Origin: Todiramphus chloris collaris
Taxonomy: Eukaryota; Chordata; Aves; Coraciiformes; Alcedinidae
Assembly: GCA_025345505.1 (NCBI GenBank)
Contig: JANVCC010009742.1
Location: 3,352,714-3,416,713, forward strand
Reading direction: 5' to 3'
Length of the DNA stretch: 64,000 nt
The translations under genes and the position numbers were made by a program. The notes under the pieces were generated by a model. That model saw only the letters and a program-made list of their open reading frames with translations. It made no database searches and was not told the DNA's origin. This document shows, piece after piece, positions 2,833 to 27,182 of the stretch. The first letter of the stretch is position 1; the number at the start of each line of letters is the position of its first letter.

Positions 2833-4299
2833 ATGAGCTTGGGCAGCATTCTCGTTGCGGATGACGACGCAGCAATCAGAACAGTCCTCAATCAGGCGCT
2901 GTCGCGTGCTGGCTACGATGTGCGCATCACGTCTAATGCAGCCACCCTGTGGCGCTGGATTTCCGCCGGTGACGGCGATCTTGTCATCACCGATGTGGTG
3001 ATGCCCGATGAAAACGCTTTCGACCTTCTGCCACGCATCAAGAAATCGCGCCCCGATCTGCCTGTTATCGTTATGAGCGCGCAGAATACCTTCATGACGG
3101 CAATCCGCGCTTCCGAGGCCGGGGCCTATGAATATCTGCCAAAGCCATTCGATCTGACCGAGCTTGTCAGCATTGTCGGCCGTGCCCTGGCGGAGCCGAA
3201 GAAGAAGCCGGAAAAATGGGCCAATGACGAACAGCCGGATACCATGCCGCTGGTGGGCCGCTCGCCCGCCATGCAGGATATCTACCGGGTTCTTGCCCGC
3301 ATGATGCAAACCGACCTGACCGTGATGATTTCAGGTGAATCCGGCACGGGCAAGGAGTTGGTGGCGCGGGCACTGCATGAATATGGCCGTCGCCGCAAGG
3401 GGCCGTTCGTCGCCATCAACATGGCTGCCATTCCGCGCGACCTGATCGAATCCGAACTGTTCGGCCATGAACGGGGTGCTTTCACTGGTGCGCAGAACCG
3501 GTCGAGCGGCCGCTTCGAACAGGCGGATGGCGGCACGCTGTTCCTCGATGAAATCGGCGATATGCCGATGGAAGCACAGACACGCCTGCTGCGCGTACTC
3601 CAGCAGGGCGAATACATGACCGTGGGCGGGCGCACGCCGATCAAGACCGATGTGCGCATCGTGGCCGCGACAAACAAAGACCTGCGGACGCTGATCAATC
3701 AGGGCATGTTCCGCGAAGATCTCTATTACCGCCTGAATGTCGTGCCGCTGCGTCTGCCGCCGTTGCGCGAGCGCGGCGAGGATATTCCCGACCTTGTCCG
3801 GCATTTCTTCAAGATGGCGGCAAAGGACGGCCTGCCGGAAAAACGCATCACCGCCGATGGTCTCGACCTGATGCGCCGCTATCCCTGGGCCGGCAATGTG
3901 CGCGAACTGGAAAACCTGGTGCGCCGTCTCGCCGCGCTTTATCCGCAGGAAGAAATCAATGCGGATGTGATTGAGGCGGAACTCAAGGCTGACCTGCGGC
4001 CGGCGGAGCCATCCTCGGCGTCGATGTCCAACGAGGACATCACCATTGCCCAGGCGGTGGAGCTGAACATGCAGCGCTACTTCCTGTCCTATGGCGATGA
4101 TCTGCCGCCGGTCGGGCTTTACCAGCGCGTGCTGGAGGAAGTGGAATACCCGCTCATCCTGTCATGCCTGACCGCCACCCATGGCAACCAGATCAAGGCA
4201 GCCGAACTGCTCGGCCTCAACCGCAACACTTTGCGCAAGAAAATCCGCGAACTGGGTGTCAACATCTACAAGAACACCAAGAACGATCTGGGCCGTTGA
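2833..4299 (+). CDS. ntrC: nitrogen assimilation response regulator NtrC (NRI)
   Basis: This is a sigma-54 enhancer-binding activator of nitrogen-assimilation genes. The 488-residue protein has a receiver domain (about 5-120) with acidic pair DDD and phospho-acceptor Asp54 in [10 protein letters not shown]. The central AAA+ domain (about 140-380) has Walker A GESGTGKE, an intact ERGAFTGAQ sigma-54-contact loop, and Walker [12 protein letters not shown]. The C-terminus is a Fis-type helix-turn-helix, [24 protein letters not shown]. In related genomes ntrY follows directly. Here the gene is followed by a hairpin terminator and then about 36.7 kb of other genes. Confidence 0.96.
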
Positions 4300-4365
4300 T
4301 TCATCAGTTCGCTGATTGAACGGCGGATTTAAATGTTGGTTTTCCCAGAGCTTGCTATTTTGTAC

Positions 4366-4397
4366 AAACGGGATCGTACGCTCGTACGATCCCGTTT
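4366..4397. terminator. bidirectional hairpin terminator between ntrC and the bacteriocin locus
   Basis: Perfect 14-bp arms (AAACGGGATCGTAC and its complement) enclose a 4-base loop, GCTC. The hairpin lies 66 bp after the ntrC stop and 6 bp after the end of the opposing immunity-like gene. The flanks contain short T runs on both sides. It can serve the two convergent transcription units. Confidence 0.8.
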
Positions 4398-4403
4398 CTG
4401 CAT

Positions 4404-4769
4404 TTAATCAGCCTTGAATGTCTGATCAACTGAAAGCTCTACTCTTTCATCGCAGGCCATTGTGGCGAAGTATCGTCCTATACGTTTGCCATCGCTTTTA
4501 ACGTAAACCGTGACTTCCCAGCCGCGGATGCCAGAATTGTATCCAAAATCCTCATCCAGTTCGAGATCATCGTACTGAAAGCCATTTTTTGCAATTTTAG
4601 TGATGTAAGAAAGTATGCCGTACTTAACTGTTGCGGTTTGCATCTCCGGGCATTGCGTTGTTCTGTCCCTGAGTAATGGGATGCCATAGACGACAAATAC
4701 GGCAAACAAGAACACCACCGCCACGATGGTCCCGGTCACGCCCAGGACCCATTTCAATAGTTTTCGCAT
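4404..4769 (-). CDS. small membrane-anchored protein, probable immunity protein for the adjacent colicin M-type bacteriocin
   Basis: The 121-residue protein has one N-terminal hydrophobic segment (about residues 7-30) preceded by RKLLK, so the remaining 90 residues should face the periplasm. It has no recognisable domain. It lies directly downstream of the bacteriocin gene with start and stop codons overlapping (bacteriocin stop 4771-4769, this ATG at 4769), so the two are translationally coupled. Established knowledge: Cmi, the immunity protein for colicin M, is a similarly sized N-terminally anchored periplasmic protein, and colicin M toxins act on periplasmic lipid II. The immunity role is inferred from size, topology and position, not from a sequence match. 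Confidence 0.6.
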   Translation of the reverse strand: MRKLLKWVLGVTGTIVAVVFLFAVFVVYGIPLLRDRTTQCPEMQTATVKYGILSYITKIAKNGFQYDDLELDEDFGYNSGIRGWEVTVYVKSDGKRIGRYFATMACDERVELSVDQTFKAD

Positions 4770-5611
4770 TAGTGCCCCTCCCAGGAGATGGGAATGGAAC
4801 CTGCCATTGATATGTCATAGTTCGTGCCCGGCAGGAGATTTACTGTTCTTGTGAACAGTTCCTGCATCATTCCACGGTGATCGCTTGGATTGAAATCATA
4901 ATGATCATCATAGGCGCGAACCTCACCTTGGAAGTTCCATGTTCCGTCTTGATGACGAGTCATGTCCCCTTCTAGCTTCAACGAGATGTTCCCTAGGTAC
5001 GCCGCTGCAATTGCATTATCTTCTGCTGTGTTATGATTAAATTTCTCAACTACAATGTGTTTCGTTCCGATAAAGTTTGAGTCATTGGTGTACTGACTTA
5101 ACTGGTTGATTTCTCTTATTTTCACCTGATCCGGCCGAAGGTTGAGACCGATCTGATTTAAGGGGACGCTCAATGCTTCTCCATGGCCTTGAAGATAATG
5201 CGCCATGGCCTTGAATGGTGACGCTATTCCTCCGGATAATGTGGTGTCATTTCTGTCATAGGTCTTGGCGCTCTCTGGTTCGGAGTCCGTTCCGTTCAGA
5301 AGATCCAAAGGCGTGTTCTGTTTGCCGAGGACATTATCGAGAAATGAGAGACCATTTAGCCAGGTGATGAAATCGCCGGGCGCATCTAGGAGCGCGTTCA
5401 GGCCGCTTACAATCCATTTCAGTCCGGGCAGACTGTTGAGAGAATTCCAGAATGCGTTTTGCGTATATTCCTGATATTGATCCCACAATCGATCCATTTC
5501 CGTATACGGATTATATAACCTACTCCCCGCCCAACCGGTGAATGAATTGCCGGGATTACTGTCTTCCCAGGATTTAATAATGATTGGTTTCAAGATTATC
5601 GTTTCAGGCAT
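4769..5611 (-). CDS. colicin M-family lipid II-degrading bacteriocin
   Basis: The 280-residue protein is predicted to cleave lipid II between undecaprenyl and the pyrophosphate-sugar in the periplasm of competing bacteria. The C-terminal half shows the colicin M family signature Asp-x-Tyr-Asp-x-Asn-x3-His-Arg at residues 236-246 (D236, Y238, D239, N241, H245, R246), complete with every key residue. Upstream are the family blocks around AMAHYLQGHGEALSV and AYLGNISLKLEG. The first roughly 115 residues, expected to carry receptor binding and translocation, match nothing I know. There is no signal peptide or GG leader. ATG 5611 is preferred because a GGAG box sits 8 nt upstream; TTG 5617 also opens the frame. 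The DNA is A+T-richer than the backbone. Confidence 0.88.
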   Translation of the reverse strand: MPETIILKPIIIKSWEDSNPGNSFTGWAGSRLYNPYTEMDRLWDQYQEYTQNAFWNSLNSLPGLKWIVSGLNALLDAPGDFITWLNGLSFLDNVLGKQNTPLDLLNGTDSEPESAKTYDRNDTTLSGGIASPFKAMAHYLQGHGEALSVPLNQIGLNLRPDQVKIREINQLSQYTNDSNFIGTKHIVVEKFNHNTAEDNAIAAAYLGNISLKLEGDMTRHQDGTWNFQGEVRAYDDHYDFNPSDHRGMMQELFTRTVNLLPGTNYDISMAGSIPISWEGH

Positions 5612-6036
5612 GCTCAAATCTCCTTAGTAAAAATAAAAAAGCATCAAAATGAAAATCCGCTTCGCCAAGCCATGCGGGGATAAACGAAAAAGGGACGTCA
5701 TTACGTTTGAAACAGGCCGGGAGAATGGGATCCTGCGTATTAAATATTCTAAATATCACACATTGTTAATAAATATGATTATTACAGTCAAGAAATAAAT
5801 GAGGCGCGTTGTTGATGACTTCCTTCATGGCAAAGAATGCTGGGCGGGGTGATCGGCGAGCTTCCGTGAATCCGGTTGAAATTGGTCCTATCCATGCTTT
5901 GAAGTTACAGAAAATAGCCGAAACCGGATGCCGCACCGCAGATAGCAAGTAGTCTTTCCCCGCTGTCGGTCCTATAATTATCTGACTAACTATACTTCCC
6001 GTCTGCACCATCGAGCACGTGCACGGCCGTTTGATC
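5612..6036. other. A+T-rich intergenic stretch upstream of the bacteriocin gene
   Basis: No gene is supported here. An 81-codon minus frame (5766-6011) has no ribosome-binding site, no recognisable domain and a biased composition, so I regard it as doubtful. The part nearest the bacteriocin (about 5735-5800) is strongly A+T-rich and is the likely promoter. I looked for the alphaproteobacterial LexA pattern GTTC-N7-GTTC by eye and did not find a clear copy. Confidence 0.4.
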
Positions 6037-21735: not shown

Positions 21736-23853
21736 TCAGGATATGGCTTCCTCGATTATGCCGTTCTGAATTCTGATTGTTCTATGCGCAAGAGCGATGC
21801 TTGATTGCCGGTGCACCACAATAATTCGCGTTATGGCAAGGCTGGCCAGTGCGCCGTTGATCTTTTTCTCATTGTCTTCGTCAAGATGGCTGGTCGCCTC
21901 ATCGAGAAACAGGATTTTTGGCTGGCGGTAAAGCGCGCGCGCCAGAAAAATCCGCTGTCTTTGGCCGCCGGACAGTGCGCTGCCCATATCGCCGACGAGT
22001 GTCTCGTAGGCCATAGGCATACGGTTTATCTCGTCGTCGATGGCCGCAAGTCGTGCGCATTGGCATACCCGCTCGCTATCGTGTTCCGGATCGAAAGCGG
22101 AAATATTTTCGGCGATCGTACCGGCGAAAAGCCGGTCATCCTGCAGAACACAAGCAACCGCTTTGCGATAGTAAGATGCGCCGAGGCGGTTGATATCCTG
22201 TCCATCGATCGACAAATGGCCATCCTGAATCACCAGCAATCCCGCCAGGAGCTTCATGAGCGTGGTTTTGCCTGCGCCGGATGGACCCGTCAGAGCAATG
22301 ATTTCTCCCGGATTGATGGTGAGATTGATATTCGTCAGAACAGGCGGGTCACCATCACTATAACAAAAGGTCAAATCCCTGACTTCCAATCTGCCCTGCA
22401 ACCGCGACATGTCCCGCTCACCCCACACGGCGCCGGTTGCCTCCTCGGGGGTGCCCAGGGCGATATCGGCAAGGCGTTCGGCGTGCATACCGAGCATGTT
22501 GAGCCGGACGGCCAGACCGATGAGCGCAGACACCCGCCCGGTGAACTGGTCCTTGTAGGCAAGGAAAGCAATGAGCATACCGATGGTCATGGCTCCGTCC
22601 ATGACGGCCGAAGCTCCCAGCCAGAGCATGATGATGCGGTCAAAACCATCAAGGAGATCGCTTGTCGTACCAAAAACCAGATCGAGTTTCCGGATGCGCA
22701 GGTCCGCATTGATCGATTCGACCATCAGGTTAAGCCATGCTCCGCGCCGTCGTTCAAACAGATCGAGCGCCTTGAGGCTGGCAATGCCCCGAATGGATTC
22801 CAGAAAGTGTGAATCCTCTTTGGCTCCCTGCACGATGGCTGCCTCGTTGGCTGCCCGATAGGCCGGGTAGGAGACGACGCGAATGAGGGTCTGGATCGCC
22901 AGCGTGGCGACAGCGACCCATGTCAGCCAGCCGCCATAGATCAGCATCAGGCTCAGCGAGCCCGCAACAACCGTGACATCGAGGACAGCCGCAACGATGT
23001 CCGTGGTCAGCGCCGACTGAATGGGAACGAGCGAGGAAAAGCGCGACACGACATCGCCGATATGACGCTTTTCGAAATAGGACAAGGGAAGGCGCAGCAG
23101 GTGATCGAACAGTCCGGTTGTCCATTGCAGGTTGAGACTGGTGCCCAAGACAAGTCCGGCCCAGCCGCGTGCAATCCCGATCATCGTCTGGAGCAGCAGG
23201 AACAGGCATAGGCCAATCGCGATGGTGATGAGCAGATCGTGATCGGCCGAGACGACAACCTGATCGATAATGATTTGCGAACCCACCGGGCTGAGGAGCG
23301 CAAAAACCTCCAGGCAGAGCGACAGCAGAAAAAGCTGGGTCAGCGCGCGCTTGAGGCCGGCGACATTGCGGAACAGATCGCTCAGGCGAATGCGTTCTCT
23401 TTCGACTTTTTTCGCAAAGCCGCCGGTCGGCAACAACTCCAGCGCGACGCCGGTGAAATGGGCCGAGGCCTGGCCGAACGTGAGAGAGCGTCGCCCGAGC
23501 GCAGGGTCGTGGACGACGATCCCCTTTGCCGTTGTCTTCGCCAGGACAACAAAGTGGGAGAAATCCCAATGCAGAATGCAGGGCAGGCGCAGATCGGCAA
23601 AATCTGCAACATCGAGACGAATGGCCCTGCTGGCAAACCCGAGCTTTGTCGCAATACGCATCAAGGACGTCAGCGCCGTGCCCTTGATGGAAGCCGCGTG
23701 CCGGCGGCGAAGGACGCCAATATCCACTCGGTTGCCGTGAAAACCGCAGATCATGGCGAGACAGGCAAGGCCGCATTCGGCCACTTCCGTTTGCAGGATG
23801 ACCGGCAAGCGATGCCTGAAGCCGAATGACACCCTATTGAGCACCGGATTCAT
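21736..23853 (-). CDS. C39-peptidase-containing ABC exporter (bacteriocin/microcin type)
   Basis: The 705-residue protein should cleave the double-glycine leader of its substrate and export the mature peptide. The N-terminal C39 peptidase (about 15-140) has catalytic Cys27 in TEVAECGLACLAMI, His in WDFSHFVVL and Asp in IVVHDPALG. About six membrane segments follow (170-440). The ATPase has Walker A GPSGAGKTT, signature LSGGQRQR, Walker B ILFLDEATS and H-loop VVHRQS. This is the CvaB/RaxB architecture. It overlaps the HlyD gene by 20 bp and is last in the operon that also encodes a GG-leader peptide. Confidence 0.93.
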   Translation of the reverse strand: MNPVLNRVSFGFRHRLPVILQTEVAECGLACLAMICGFHGNRVDIGVLRRRHAASIKGTALTSLMRIATKLGFASRAIRLDVADFADLRLPCILHWDFSHFVVLAKTTAKGIVVHDPALGRRSLTFGQASAHFTGVALELLPTGGFAKKVERERIRLSDLFRNVAGLKRALTQLFLLSLCLEVFALLSPVGSQIIIDQVVVSADHDLLITIAIGLCLFLLLQTMIGIARGWAGLVLGTSLNLQWTTGLFDHLLRLPLSYFEKRHIGDVVSRFSSLVPIQSALTTDIVAAVLDVTVVAGSLSLMLIYGGWLTWVAVATLAIQTLIRVVSYPAYRAANEAAIVQGAKEDSHFLESIRGIASLKALDLFERRRGAWLNLMVESINADLRIRKLDLVFGTTSDLLDGFDRIIMLWLGASAVMDGAMTIGMLIAFLAYKDQFTGRVSALIGLAVRLNMLGMHAERLADIALGTPEEATGAVWGERDMSRLQGRLEVRDLTFCYSDGDPPVLTNINLTINPGEIIALTGPSGAGKTTLMKLLAGLLVIQDGHLSIDGQDINRLGASYYRKAVACVLQDDRLFAGTIAENISAFDPEHDSERVCQCARLAAIDDEINRMPMAYETLVGDMGSALSGGQRQRIFLARALYRQPKILFLDEATSHLDEDNEKKINGALASLAITRIIVVHRQSSIALAHRTIRIQNGIIEEAIS

Positions 23854-25165
23854 TTCTTGTGCTTGATCCCGGCCCGCCGCCAATGCCGCCGCTCAGGCTG
23901 TAGAGCGGCTCCAATATCCATTCATACAGCTTTCTGGTTTCCAGAAAGACATCGGCTTCGACGTCCATGCCGACCTGCAATGGTTCACGTTTGCCATAGG
24001 CAAGCACGGTGTCCTGCTCCGGCTTGGCGGAAACCCGATAAAAGCCGCTGGGCGGCTGTTTTCCCGCGATTTGCCCGCCGGCAATGCCTTCGCCGTCCGT
24101 TGCGCGCAACGCGACGCGGGAAATCTCTGCAATGATCGCGGGATACTGGCCGAACTTCTGATAGGGAAACGGCGCGTAGCGCAGAAGCACAGGCGATCCC
24201 TGTCTGATAAAACCGATTGCCGCGCTTGAGGCAAAAAAGTGAATTTCCAGATGTCCCGATGCCGGCAATATGGACAAAAGCGGTGTGCCTGCGCCAACCG
24301 TCTGCCCCGACTGGACAAGCACGGCTGTCACCGTGCCATCCTGTGGCGCCGTCACCAATATTTCCCGGTTGCGCTCCATATCTGCGCTCTGTTGATCAAG
24401 AGCCGATATTTGTCGCCGCAACCCGCCGATGGCGGATGCCGCCTCATGATCGAAGCCCCTGAGCTTGGAACGGATCTCCTGCAATTTGGACTGCAGCTGG
24501 ATGGTGTCCCGGCGCAGGTTTTCCAGCAGTGCGCGCTGCCCCATGTAACTTTCCCGCCGCACCTCGAATTCCCGTTGTGCAACAATGCCTTTCTCAACGA
24601 CGCCTTCCAGCCTGTCGGCGAATTGCTTCAGGGTTTCCGCATAGGTGGCCGTTACGGATATCTGTGCCGCAACCTGGGCAATCTCCCGCTCGAGCGCAGC
24701 CGCCTGCTTTTGCAGATTGTCCCTTTGTTCCTTGTCCAGTTCAACGCGGCGCGCAATCTCCACCTGCAGTTCGTTTCGCTGCAGGCGGATCTGGCCGATG
24801 ATGGCGGCATAGGTGTTTCCATCGGAGGTCGTACTATCGGTGCTCAATACATACAGGCGGTCGCCTTTATGCACGGGCTGCCCCTCGCTGGCTGAGGTTT
24901 CGACAACCCGTCCGGCTTGCGGAGCAATCAAACGCACGACGCCGACGCTGGTCTGCACCGTGCCGGTGAGGCGGACCCTGCGCGTGTATTCGCCAAATGC
25001 CACGAACATGCCGATCATTGCGACCGAAGCCACCGCACACCCCGTCGCCACTGTTGCGGATATCGGTCGCAATAATTGCGGGCGGCCGAACCATTTGTGC
25101 TTGCGGCCGTCAATGGCTTCCTGACGAAAAAGCGCAAGATTTGCGCTCTCATTCGCGGGGGGCAC
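23834..25165 (-). CDS. HlyD-family membrane fusion protein (microcin exporter adaptor)
   Basis: The 443-residue adaptor links the inner-membrane C39 ABC exporter to an outer-membrane channel (CvaA/RaxA type). There is one N-terminal membrane segment (VATGCAVASVAMIGMFVAFGEYTRRV), a lipoyl-like half RLIAPQAGRVVETSASEGQPVHKGDRLYVL, a long coiled coil (about 140-250) and a returning barrel APQDGTVTAVLVQSGQTVGAGTPLL. GTG 25165 is preferred; the frame continues open to 25546 inside the upstream gene, where it has no plausible signal. It overlaps the PrsW-like gene by 17 bp. No TolC homologue is present in the window. Confidence 0.9.
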   Translation of the reverse strand: MPPANESANLALFRQEAIDGRKHKWFGRPQLLRPISATVATGCAVASVAMIGMFVAFGEYTRRVRLTGTVQTSVGVVRLIAPQAGRVVETSASEGQPVHKGDRLYVLSTDSTTSDGNTYAAIIGQIRLQRNELQVEIARRVELDKEQRDNLQKQAAALEREIAQVAAQISVTATYAETLKQFADRLEGVVEKGIVAQREFEVRRESYMGQRALLENLRRDTIQLQSKLQEIRSKLRGFDHEAASAIGGLRRQISALDQQSADMERNREILVTAPQDGTVTAVLVQSGQTVGAGTPLLSILPASGHLEIHFFASSAAIGFIRQGSPVLLRYAPFPYQKFGQYPAIIAEISRVALRATDGEGIAGGQIAGKQPPSGFYRVSAKPEQDTVLAYGKREPLQVGMDVEADVFLETRKLYEWILEPLYSLSGGIGGGPGSSTRNESGAQ

Positions 25166-25631
25166 TGTTGATGCGCCGTTCAAAGTAATAGTAGCCAAAC
25201 AGAAGAACCACCTCGGCGAGTGTATATGGCAAGGACAACACGAGCGTATAAGAATATAGGGGTAGGGTCGGCAGCTGATAGAGAGTAAAATTCGACGCAA
25301 AATGCACCAGTGTGCAGTAGAAGATTGCCGCGTAAATCCATCTGGCTTTGGCATAAACCAATGATGTAAAAATGTGAAAGCTGGTTGAGGAGACAACGAC
25401 GAACAAGGTTCCAAGCACTGCAAACACCGGACCGGCACCAAGTTCCAAAGTGTGCTCGTAGACCACCGGTGTCTTGAACACACATTCGAGGCCAAAAAAC
25501 AGGAAATAGGACGGTATGCGGAACCTGGTGTCGCGGAACAGGACAACGAGGTAAGCCTTGATCAACTCCTCAATCCCGGCCAAAATAAATGTCGTTGAAA
25601 TATTCCGGGCCAAATCCAAAGCATTGCTCAT
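25149..25631 (-). CDS. PrsW-like membrane protein A of the microcin locus
   Basis: The 160-residue polytopic protein has about four to five membrane segments. Polar residues in membrane segments match the glutamic intramembrane-protease pattern: EExxK (E21, E22, K25), E49 in FFGLEC, H86 in TSFHIF and H110 in TLVHF. PrsW and CPBP relatives process peptides or give bacteriocin immunity in other systems, so either role is possible. It follows the GG-peptide gene by about 50 bp and overlaps the HlyD gene. The first roughly 105 residues are almost identical to protein B at 26287-26766, while the C-terminal third diverges. Confidence 0.7.
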   Translation of the reverse strand: MSNALDLARNISTTFILAGIEELIKAYLVVLFRDTRFRIPSYFLFFGLECVFKTPVVYEHTLELGAGPVFAVLGTLFVVVSSTSFHIFTSLVYAKARWIYAAIFYCTLVHFASNFTLYQLPTLPLYSYTLVLSLPYTLAEVVLLFGYYYFERRINSAPRE

Positions 25632-25680
25632 GGTTCAGGATTGAGAGGGGTAAGCGCGGCCATGCCGCGCTTTAAGATAT

Positions 25681-26067
25681 TCAGGCTAGCGGGACCGGTA
25701 TTGACCTTTGCCGCCACCACCTGTTTCCGCCTTGGTTGGGGCCATTGCCGTCGCCACTACCGCCGGTATAGTCGCCCATCGCGTTGTAGGCACCAAAATC
25801 TGGCGTACCGCCGCCTTTGAACGCACTTTTGATGGCCTGGCCAATATAACTCAAGAGATTATCCTTCGGATTATTGGACGGCAGTCTCGATGCCTCATAG
25901 GTATGGTCCATGATGGAGCCGCCATCGGCCCCCTTGCCAATGCCTTTACCCGTAGCACTTGAGCTTTTGCTGTTACTGGATGTTTGGCCTTTGGAATAAC
26001 CGGTGTCGCGATCCAAAGCGCCTCCACCAACGACGAACGATATTTCATGCTCGGTTAGTTCACGCAT
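25681..26067 (-). CDS. double-glycine-leader microcin/bacteriocin precursor
   Basis: The 128-residue precursor begins MRELTEHEISFVVGG, a 15-residue leader with the colicin V-type pattern (conserved Leu/Glu/Ile/Val spacing and GG at -2/-1). The mature part is Gly/Ser/Asn-rich (DTGYSKGQTSSNSKSSSATGKGIGKG), with a short amphipathic segment NLLSYIGQAIKSAFKGGG and a basic, Trp-containing tail GNRWWRQRS. ATG 26067 is preferred over ATG 26079 because GGAG lies 7 bases upstream. It sits in one operon with a C39 exporter and HlyD adaptor, exactly the machinery that handles GG leaders. The target and activity are unknown, and no homologue is recognised beyond the leader. Confidence 0.82.
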   Translation of the reverse strand: MRELTEHEISFVVGGGALDRDTGYSKGQTSSNSKSSSATGKGIGKGADGGSIMDHTYEASRLPSNNPKDNLLSYIGQAIKSAFKGGGTPDFGAYNAMGDYTGGSGDGNGPNQGGNRWWRQRSIPVPLA

Positions 26068-26286
26068 CAAAATCTCCATATTTAAATAATAAAATCAATA
26101 TGTTGAAATATGAAATCTACTCGATGGATTTATTGTGTTCATAAAATGCAGTGCCGTGAAAACACTGTTTGGCTGCTCATTCATGGAATGCCCGCAAGGC
26201 CTCTATCCGGGTATTATTGATTGGACGGATGATACTTCCATGAAACCCTGACGCCAATCCGTAGCTATACTTACAGCCGCCCGCGC

Positions 26287-26766
26287 TCAATCGCAGCGCG
26301 CAACGTTCATCCATCGTTCGAAATAAAAGTAGGCAAAGAGAATGATTATCGCGACTGATGTATATGGCCACCAGATGAACGCGTAGATTTTGAGGGGAAT
26401 AGCGGGCAAATAATCCATCGTCGTGTTGACGGTGGAATGAATGACTGTGCAGTAGAAAATTGCCGCATAAATCCATCTGGCTTTGGCATAAACCAATGAT
26501 GTAAAAATGTGAAAGCTGGTTGAGGAGACAACGACGGACAAGGTTCCAAGCACAGCAAATACCGGACCGGCACCAAGTTCCAACATGTAATCATAAATCA
26601 CCGGCGTCTTGAAAGCGCACTCCAGACCAAAAAACAGGAAATAGGACGGTATGCGGAACCTGGTGTCGCGAAAAAGGACAACGAGGTAAGCCTTGATCAA
26701 CTCCTCAATCCCGGCCAAAATAAATGTCGTTGAAATATTCCGGGCCAAATCCAAAGCAGTGCTCAT
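26287..26766 (-). CDS. PrsW-like membrane protein B of the microcin locus
   Basis: The 159-residue paralogue of protein A has the same residues at the putative active site (EExxK, FFGLE, SFHIF and VIH). The N-terminal two thirds are almost identical at DNA level to protein A, while the last roughly 50 residues (from NTTMDYLPAIPLKIYAF) differ, though the fold and ending YFERWMN resemble it. It is transcribed toward the GG-peptide gene, with 219 bp between. The two copies flank the peptide gene, as if the gene were duplicated around it and one copy then specialised. Confidence 0.7.
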   Translation of the reverse strand: MSTALDLARNISTTFILAGIEELIKAYLVVLFRDTRFRIPSYFLFFGLECAFKTPVIYDYMLELGAGPVFAVLGTLSVVVSSTSFHIFTSLVYAKARWIYAAIFYCTVIHSTVNTTMDYLPAIPLKIYAFIWWPYTSVAIIILFAYFYFERWMNVARCD

Positions 26767-26798
26767 GGTTCGGGATTGAAGGTGGCACGTGCGTGCGG

Positions 26799-27182
26799 TT
26801 ATTTGTGGTTTTCGTCAGTCAATTCTTTTGGTCTGGCCGTTAGCTGCGCGATGAAAAAACAGGCGAAAACTCCGGAAAACACGAGTGTTGCTGAAATGAA
26901 ATCTGTATCGTCTCCACAGTACAGTAGGCTAAACAGAGTTGAGCCTACGATGGATTTCAATATTACTTTATAAGAATTGGTAAAAGTTGAATCTTTTATG
27001 CATGAAAACGCAATAATTATTGATGGAATTGATAGTAACTTTAGTATCAATAGGACGTGCGGGTGGTTTCTAAACGTCGAGTCCGATATTATGATTGCTG
27101 CTAGTGCAAGAAAAACAAGTGTGTTGCAGCCGCTCTTTTTATATTGAGAAAGCATTGGCATACGCGTTGTCCGTAAGATCAT
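26799..27182 (-). CDS. hypothetical small membrane protein, possible immunity protein
   Basis: The 127-residue protein has about three to four hydrophobic segments (TLVFLALAAIIIS, VLLILKLLSIPSIIIAFSC, ISATLVFSGVFACFFIAQL). No family is recognised. It lies 32 bp upstream of PrsW-like B on the same strand, so it may be the first gene of the microcin operon. Small polytopic proteins in this position often give self-immunity, but there is no direct evidence. Three in-frame ATGs (27182, 27161, 27155) all lack a good ribosome-binding site. The DNA is markedly A+T-rich. Confidence 0.5.
   Translation of the reverse strand: MILRTTRMPMLSQYKKSGCNTLVFLALAAIIISDSTFRNHPHVLLILKLLSIPSIIIAFSCIKDSTFTNSYKVILKSIVGSTLFSLLYCGDDTDFISATLVFSGVFACFFIAQLTARPKELTDENHK

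What the first reader, a model, noticed from the sequence alone, without database searches (positions are those of the whole stretch)
21736..27182. Undescribed microcin-like locus: GG-leader precursor, C39 exporter, HlyD adaptor and two PrsW-like proteins
Seen: the order on the minus strand is small membrane protein, PrsW-like B, GG-leader precursor (MRELTEHEISFVVGG then a Gly/Ser-rich 113-residue mature part), PrsW-like A, HlyD and C39-ABC, with overlaps between the last three. Established: C39-ABC plus HlyD exports and trims double-glycine peptides (colicin V, class II microcins). Inference: a secreted peptide with a self-protection or processing protein. The pairing of the exporter with EExxK-type intramembrane-protease-like proteins is unusual. 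The mature peptide resembles none I know.
Basis: partly seen in the sequence, partly recalled or inferred. Interest (0 to 1): 0.85.

Follow-up and report, generated by a model that had tools for sequence, protein, structure and literature searches.

The report
Rhizobial microcin-like locus with intramembrane-protease immunity candidates
A soil-bacterium relative carries genes to make and export a small double-glycine peptide, paired with two small membrane proteins that look like intramembrane proteases and most likely protect the producer from its own peptide.

The parts
21736..23853 (-). C39-peptidase ABC exporter (705 aa); triad C27, H100, D116; Walker A at 523, LSGGQ at 627, Walker B at 647
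   Evidence: Pfam PF03412, PF00664, PF00005; residues located; exporters of 59-63% identity in G001, G002, G003 and G099
23834..25165 (-). HlyD-family periplasmic adaptor; start GTG 25165 or TTG 25183, overlapping both neighbours
   Evidence: Pfam HlyD_3, TIGR01843 below its cut-off; start codons
25149..25631 (-). PrsW-like A (160 aa): EELIK at 21-25, E49, H86, H110xxxN114; candidate cognate immunity protein
   Evidence: Alignment A6, hhalign to PrsW, model and VIA-align match to APH-1, recurring position after the peptide
25652..25672 (-). GC-rich stem-loop between precursor and A (9-bp stem, no T run)
   Evidence: Fold; the 81-nt stretch folds no better than shuffles (z -0.43, 63 of 200 at least as well)
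25681..26067 (-). GG-leader precursor peptide, 15-aa leader plus 113-aa Gly/Ser-rich part; carries the family tail PDFGAYNAMGDYTGG
26287..26766 (-). PrsW-like B (159 aa), mosaic duplicate of A; no precursor directly upstream; possible orphan immunity gene
26799..27182 (-). 127-aa membrane protein of low GC (0.388), no known family; 30% identity over 37 residues to a membrane protein at the end of the L086 array (single-pair E=0.003)

Best explanation
This is a microcin-like toxin-immunity locus. The C39 domain of the ABC exporter cuts the precursor after GG and the 113-aa Gly/Ser-rich peptide leaves through ABC-HlyD and an outer-membrane channel (inferred from family knowledge; not shown). PrsW-like A is the cognate immunity protein: a minimal (about 160 aa, five long helices in the model) member of the PrsW/APH-1/type II CAAX superfamily in the inner membrane that protects the producer, most likely by cutting the peptide or its membrane-inserted form (inferred). 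B is a duplicate whose diverged last third suggests a different specificity, an immunity gene kept against a variant peptide (inferred). Shown here: gene content, leader and motifs, profile similarity to PrsW, the repeated peptide-PrsW pairing, and CPBP or small membrane proteins in the same place in sister loci. Not shown: secretion, toxicity, protease activity, immunity.
Confidence: 0.58

Rival explanations
1. The PrsW-like proteins are maturation or release proteases: they make a second cut in the exported peptide (for example near the conserved tail) or free it from the membrane, and immunity lies elsewhere, for instance in the 127-aa membrane protein. (Overlaps with the best explanation, since one protein could do both; the odds are therefore not strictly exclusive.)
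For: Catalytic-type residues invariant in 23 sequences; PrsW domains proposed to process polymorphic toxins (passages of PMC3482391); SilX and SagE precedents (PMC9298176); A overlaps HlyD; the peptide tail is conserved as a processing site might be.
Against: A G099 peptide with nearly the same leader and the same tail as its PrsW-paired neighbour is followed by a 60-aa membrane protein, and tail-bearing peptides in G207 and G214 by CPBP or a 101-aa membrane protein; three genomes run a 62-63% identical exporter without a PrsW-like match. Duplication with a diverging C-terminal third is odd for a processing enzyme.
Confidence: 0.25
2. The exported peptide is not antibacterial but a signal, adhesin or matrix peptide, and the PrsW-like proteins act in sensing or regulated proteolysis of it.
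For: The Gly/Ser-rich, Cys-free peptide matches no known toxin family; a second GG-leader peptide 465 kb away in the same chromosome has no obvious neighbouring immunity gene within the 3.1 kb seen.
Against: One membrane protein per peptide, exchange of partners, and a low-GC cassette beside an exporter of genome-like GC are usual marks of bacteriocins (recalled); no sigma/anti-sigma or kinase family found in the six genes.
Confidence: 0.13
3. The locus is decaying: the peptide gene has an altered C-terminus or is unexpressed, and A/B are relics.
For: The window peptide ends in WWRQRSIPVPLA where the 86% identical P0011 stops at GGNR; related loci show broken frames.
Against: All six window frames are open; the identical peptide cluster P0010 stands on 14 contigs; the conserved residues of A and B and the exporter's triad and Walker motifs are intact.
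Confidence: 0.06

Closest known systems
Class II microcins (microcin V type: CvaC, Cvi, CvaB, CvaA, TolC)
   Same: 15-aa double-glycine leader, C39-ABC plus HlyD/MFP encoded next to the peptide and a candidate immunity membrane protein
   Different: Mature part 11.6 kDa, no Gly/Ser-rich C-terminal end as in class IIb, immunity candidate a 160-aa protease-like protein; rhizobial chromosome
Abi/CPBP (type II CAAX) immunity proteins of Gram-positive bacteriocins
   Same: Intramembrane protease superfamily with glutamate and histidine motifs, gene in the bacteriocin cluster; true CPBP proteins (PF02517) come directly after the peptide in three related loci (L004, L088, L121)
   Different: The window proteins are PrsW-like (EExxK) and do not match the CPBP Pfam model; Gram-negative type I secretion context
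PrsW peptidases (anti-sigma factor cleavage; PrsW-fused polymorphic toxins)
   Same: EExxK, a later Glu, His and HxxxN/D in the same order; profile similarity
   Different: 160 aa and five long helices in the model against eight TM helices for most PrsW (PMC3482391); below Pfam detection; stand-alone gene paired with a secreted peptide
Cdz system of Caulobacter crescentus (glycine-zipper peptides, type I secretion, CdzI)
   Same: Alphaproteobacterial small peptides exported by type I secretion with a membrane immunity protein; some peptides of the sister loci (L086 peptide 1, L088, L121) look glycine-zipper-like by eye
   Different: The window peptide lacks an extended hydrophobic glycine zipper; CdzI is described as a small transmembrane protein (passages of PMC5380434), with no protease motif mentioned in what I read

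Membership tests
Class II microcin | N-terminal leader of 15-18 aa ending in GG or GA | tested here: met
   MRELTEHEISFVVGG; definition from passages of PMC10233263
Class II microcin | C39-peptidase ABC transporter with Cys/His/Asp triad, encoded nearby | tested here: met
   PF03412 E=2e-32; C27, H100, D116
Class II microcin | Membrane fusion protein encoded nearby | tested here: met
   HlyD_3 E=6e-17
Class II microcin | Mature size less than or about 10 kDa | tested here: not met
   11.6 kDa for 113 residues; close to the limit, but for this reason called microcin-like only
Class II microcin | Adjacent cognate immunity protein | tested here: inconclusive
   Candidate A by position and recurring pairing; function untested
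Class II microcin | TolC-type outer membrane channel in the genome | not tested
   No search made
Class II microcin | Antibacterial activity | not testable with these tools
   Needs an assay
PrsW family (PF13367) | Match to the curated profile | tested here: not met
   0 of 23 members match PF13367 at E<=1; one member has a chance-level match to YhfC intramembrane metalloprotease (PF10086, E=0.5)
PrsW family (PF13367) | EExxK, FxxxE, H, HxxxN/D in order | tested here: inconclusive
   E, E, K, E49, H86, H110, N114 invariant in A6 and the matching residues in A7, but the F of FxxxE is kept only in part of the family, and hhalign keeps EE..K, H and HxxxN/D in register and not E49
CPBP/Abi (PF02517) | Match to the curated profile; EExxxR | tested here: not met
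   0 of 23 members match PF02517 at E<=1; EExxK and not EExxxR
Type II CAAX/PrsW/APH-1 superfamily | Shared membrane fold | tested here: inconclusive
NHLP bacteriocin exporter (TIGR03796) | Equivalog cut-off 853 bits | tested here: not met
   498 bits
Cdz system | Extended hydrophobic GxxxGxxxG repeat in the peptide | tested here: not met
   Read from the sequence by eye: Gly/Ser-rich and polar, no long hydrophobic zipper

The most novel reading that the evidence does not exclude
Rhizobia use a minimal, previously unnamed PrsW/APH-1-like intramembrane protease family as dedicated, swappable immunity to exported microcin-like peptides. Most of the catalytic core is kept uniform by gene conversion while the last third diversifies to track peptide variants. 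True CPBP proteases have been recruited into the same place, so the type II CAAX superfamily was adopted at least twice as proteolytic immunity in Gram-negative type I secretion loci. In a second branch the peptide has left the GG-leader/C39 route for a C39-less ABC route, now and then beside a HlyC-type acyltransferase, while keeping the same kind of protease partner.
Probability: 0.4. Interest if true: 0.75.

Novelty: new variant of a known kind. Interest (0 to 1): 0.58.

Why it matters
Immunity proteins of class II microcins cannot at present be located by conserved sequence features (stated in a passage of PMC10233263). A recognisable protease motif next to the peptide would make some of them findable, and the A/B pair, differing mainly in the last third, offers a direct test of what sets immunity specificity. 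It would also give the PrsW/APH-1/CAAX superfamily a small, tractable member with a likely genetically linked substrate.

Tried and rejected
Scans with the PrsW-like alignment of genome contigs and viral contigs, and of plasmids with PrsW-like A, found nothing; the tools warn that near records may be left out. The first structure from 10 close sequences was poor (pLDDT 70.1) and gave no usable fold match. Sequence search of solved structures with A6 gave one match, a 38-residue piece of a ferredoxin:NAD oxidoreductase subunit at E=0.016, taken as chance. Foldseek with the better model gave no E<=0.001; APH-1 5a63_C stood at rank 16 with E=2.2. In VIA-align the solved archaeal CAAX protease 4cad is not among the rows shown; that is no evidence either way. 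Circular shifts of the A6 profile kept scores up to 28.7; most leave the aligned stretch intact, so I do not count them as a control. 15 of 100 column shuffles returned no alignment and are not in the count. PrsW against CPBP, accepted relatives, gave only E=0.31 in the same test. Membership in NHLP exporters rejected. A precursor remnant upstream of B was sought by blastn and not found (one 11-nt chance match). Promoter-like sites: 6 against 3.2 (sd 1.8) in shuffles; terminator-like 2 against 2.2 (sd 1.7). The stem-loop between precursor and A is visible but the stretch is not more stable than shuffles. CPBP-like proteins near C39 exporters in general: a motif filter over the 80 loci kept of 119 flagged 3 (L004, L062, L081); L004 and L062 were confirmed as PF02517, L081 was not tested; so the association is not general.

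Literature: searches. 'microcin' with 'PrsW' returned 0 papers; 'class II microcin' with 'double-glycine' and 'Alphaproteobacteria' 0; 'microcin' with 'CPBP' 4; 'microcin', 'CAAX' and 'C39' 3; 'PrsW' with 'bacteriocin' 16. By the titles and abstract starts listed, none of these is about PrsW-like immunity to a microcin; I did not open them except as stated. I read passages only of PMC3482391, PMC6588880, PMC5380434 and PMC10233263, and outline, abstract and passages of PMC9298176. Kjos 2010 and Pei 2011 are not held; what I say of them comes from papers citing them or from recall. Papers outside the open library are not covered, so 'appears new' means in these searches.
Full report
Setting. 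The window is the last 64 kb of a 3,416,713-base contig (C618) in an assembly of 1.17 Gb and 889 contigs, so it is a bacterium sequenced together with what is by size a eukaryote. The named relatives of A nearest in sequence are from Phyllobacterium.

Anatomy. Searches confirm the six genes. Exporter genes have the GC of the window (ABC 0.576, HlyD 0.591, window 0.582), the cassette genes less: A 0.484, precursor 0.545, B 0.46, the 127-aa protein 0.388. The exporter has C39, ABC membrane and ATPase domains and the peptidase triad C27/H100/D116. The precursor leader has the consensus positions; the mature part is 113 aa, 11.6 kDa.

The pairing. Searches with the PrsW-like profile found matches in 2 of 394 genomes of the family of G003, 0 of 6 of the genus of G003, 1 of 7 of the genus of G099 (G099 itself), 4 of 148 of the genus of G299, 1 of 397 of the order (G299 again) and 0 of 3 in G001-G003. 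These are 6 distinct genes in 5 genomes. In 6 of 6 a peptide with the tail PDxxxYxAMGDY (one copy reads TVMGDY) lies upstream on the same strand, directly in 5 and with a CPBP between in 1. The loci in the genus of G299 partly share neighbours, so I count about three independent settings: the window, the G099 array and that genus. Window A fits; window B has no peptide of its own.

The reverse search. The peptide profile matched 7 places in 5 of 394 genomes. Next genes downstream: PrsW-like with a stop inside the frame (G299:C50), CPBP then PrsW-like (G299:C13), PrsW-like (G099, peptide 2), a 60-aa membrane protein (G099, peptide 1), a PAP2 phosphatase (G003; the peptide's end looks cut), two tandem CPBP (G207) and a 101-aa membrane protein (G214). 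So 4 of 7 have a type II CAAX superfamily neighbour. The profile was built partly from PrsW loci, which favours the G299 and G099 places; G003, G207 and G214 are new, and of these 1 of 3 has one.

Exporter without PrsW. The exporter scan gave Paramesorhizobium deserti (63%), a Mesorhizobium MAG (61%) and P. salinisoli (62%). None has a PrsW-like match (0 of 3). Between a GG-leader peptide and HlyD the first has a 65-aa membrane protein, the second a 300-aa CPBP with PF02517 E=5e-20; these two peptides do not carry the tail. The third contig is cut there. In G099 the array HlyD, C39-ABC, peptide 1 (leader ending GS) + 60-aa protein, peptide 2 (frame broken) + PrsW-like, peptide 3 (without the tail) + 66-aa protein, 134-aa protein shows one membrane protein per peptide. 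A processing enzyme would be expected to be shared by peptides of one leader and tail; an immunity protein to be exchanged with the peptide core. The second is closer to what is seen.

A and B. Aligned codon by codon, blocks of 20 codons have 59, 58, 48, 55, 59, 37, 34 and 40 of 60 identical bases. Apart from codons 41-60 the first hundred codons are nearly uniform also at silent sites, and blastn ends the similar stretch at base 321, codon 107. H110 and N114 lie in the diverged third but are kept. I read this as gene conversion of the core with diversification of the last third (inference).

A wider branch. In the genus of G299 and in G207 the peptides lack a canonical leader (for instance ...RRSFMGGSS). 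In L102 and L121 they lie divergently beside an ABC protein in which Pfam finds no C39 domain and a HlyD-like gene (my naming); in L103 and L104 only shortened ABC frames are seen, and in the printed stretches of L087 and L088 I saw none. L121 and L087 have a HlyC-type acyltransferase (PF02794, E=1e-34 and 2e-33). The L087 peptide has lysines, the L121 peptide has none, so acylation of the peptide itself is doubtful at least there. Of 8 genomes searched with the window exporter, 7 have a match at E<=1e-80 (43-48% identity in G565, G567 and G570, not adjacent to the peptide) and G299 has none. Leader and adjacent C39 exporter thus seem to go together, while the peptide tail and the protease partner persist.

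Own genome. A second GG-leader peptide (MRELTAEEIEFVSGG..., 113 aa from its ATG) lies at C618:2913289, some 465 kb from the locus, between a PhzF-like and a DsbA-like gene (my naming from the sequence; no call), with no evident partner within the 3.1 kb seen. The same exporter may serve both (inference).

Judgement. A microcin-like export locus: about 0.9. A and B in the PrsW/APH-1/CAAX superfamily: about 0.85. A as self-immunity given that: about 0.65. I do not file the peptide as a class II microcin, because the size limit is exceeded slightly and activity is unknown, nor A and B as PrsW or CPBP family members, because both curated models fail. The kind of system, a bacteriocin with a CAAX-superfamily partner, is reported from Gram-positive bacteria; the PrsW-like minimal form, its cassette behaviour and its Gram-negative setting are what appears new.

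Noticed in passing
window 4769-5617 and 4404-4769 (-): A 282-aa colicin M family protein (PF14859, E=5e-39) abuts a 121-aa membrane ORF without known family, possibly its immunity gene, in a low-GC stretch (0.475 for 4001-6000): a second bacteriocin-like module 16 kb from the near end of the locus.
   Followed up: partly
L124:1501-1842 (+), C618 about 2913289: A second GG-leader peptide in the same chromosome, with two Cys in the mature part, unlinked to the exporter and without evident partner in the 3.1 kb seen.
   Followed up: partly
L121:4795-5232 and L087:8921-9367: HlyC-type acyltransferases (PF02794) near relatives of the peptide that lack a canonical GG leader; the L087 peptide has lysines, the L121 peptide none, so what is acylated is open.
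   Followed up: partly
L117:1507-3229 (same place as L121 from 8591): Peptide with the shared tail followed by two tandem CPBP proteases, the same arrangement of duplicates as in the window but from another protease family.
   Followed up: yes
L118:1492-1878 (-): A tail-bearing peptide whose N-terminus looks by eye like a Sec signal and not a GG leader, followed by a 101-aa membrane protein.
   Followed up: no
window 25681-25719: The window peptide runs on into WWRQRSIPVPLA where the 86% identical P0011 stops at GGNR; 8 of the 9 other peptides compared end in Arg or Lys.
   Followed up: no
window 1-64000: The window is the end of a bacterial contig held within a 1.17-Gb assembly, so a co-sequenced bacterium.
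   Followed up: no
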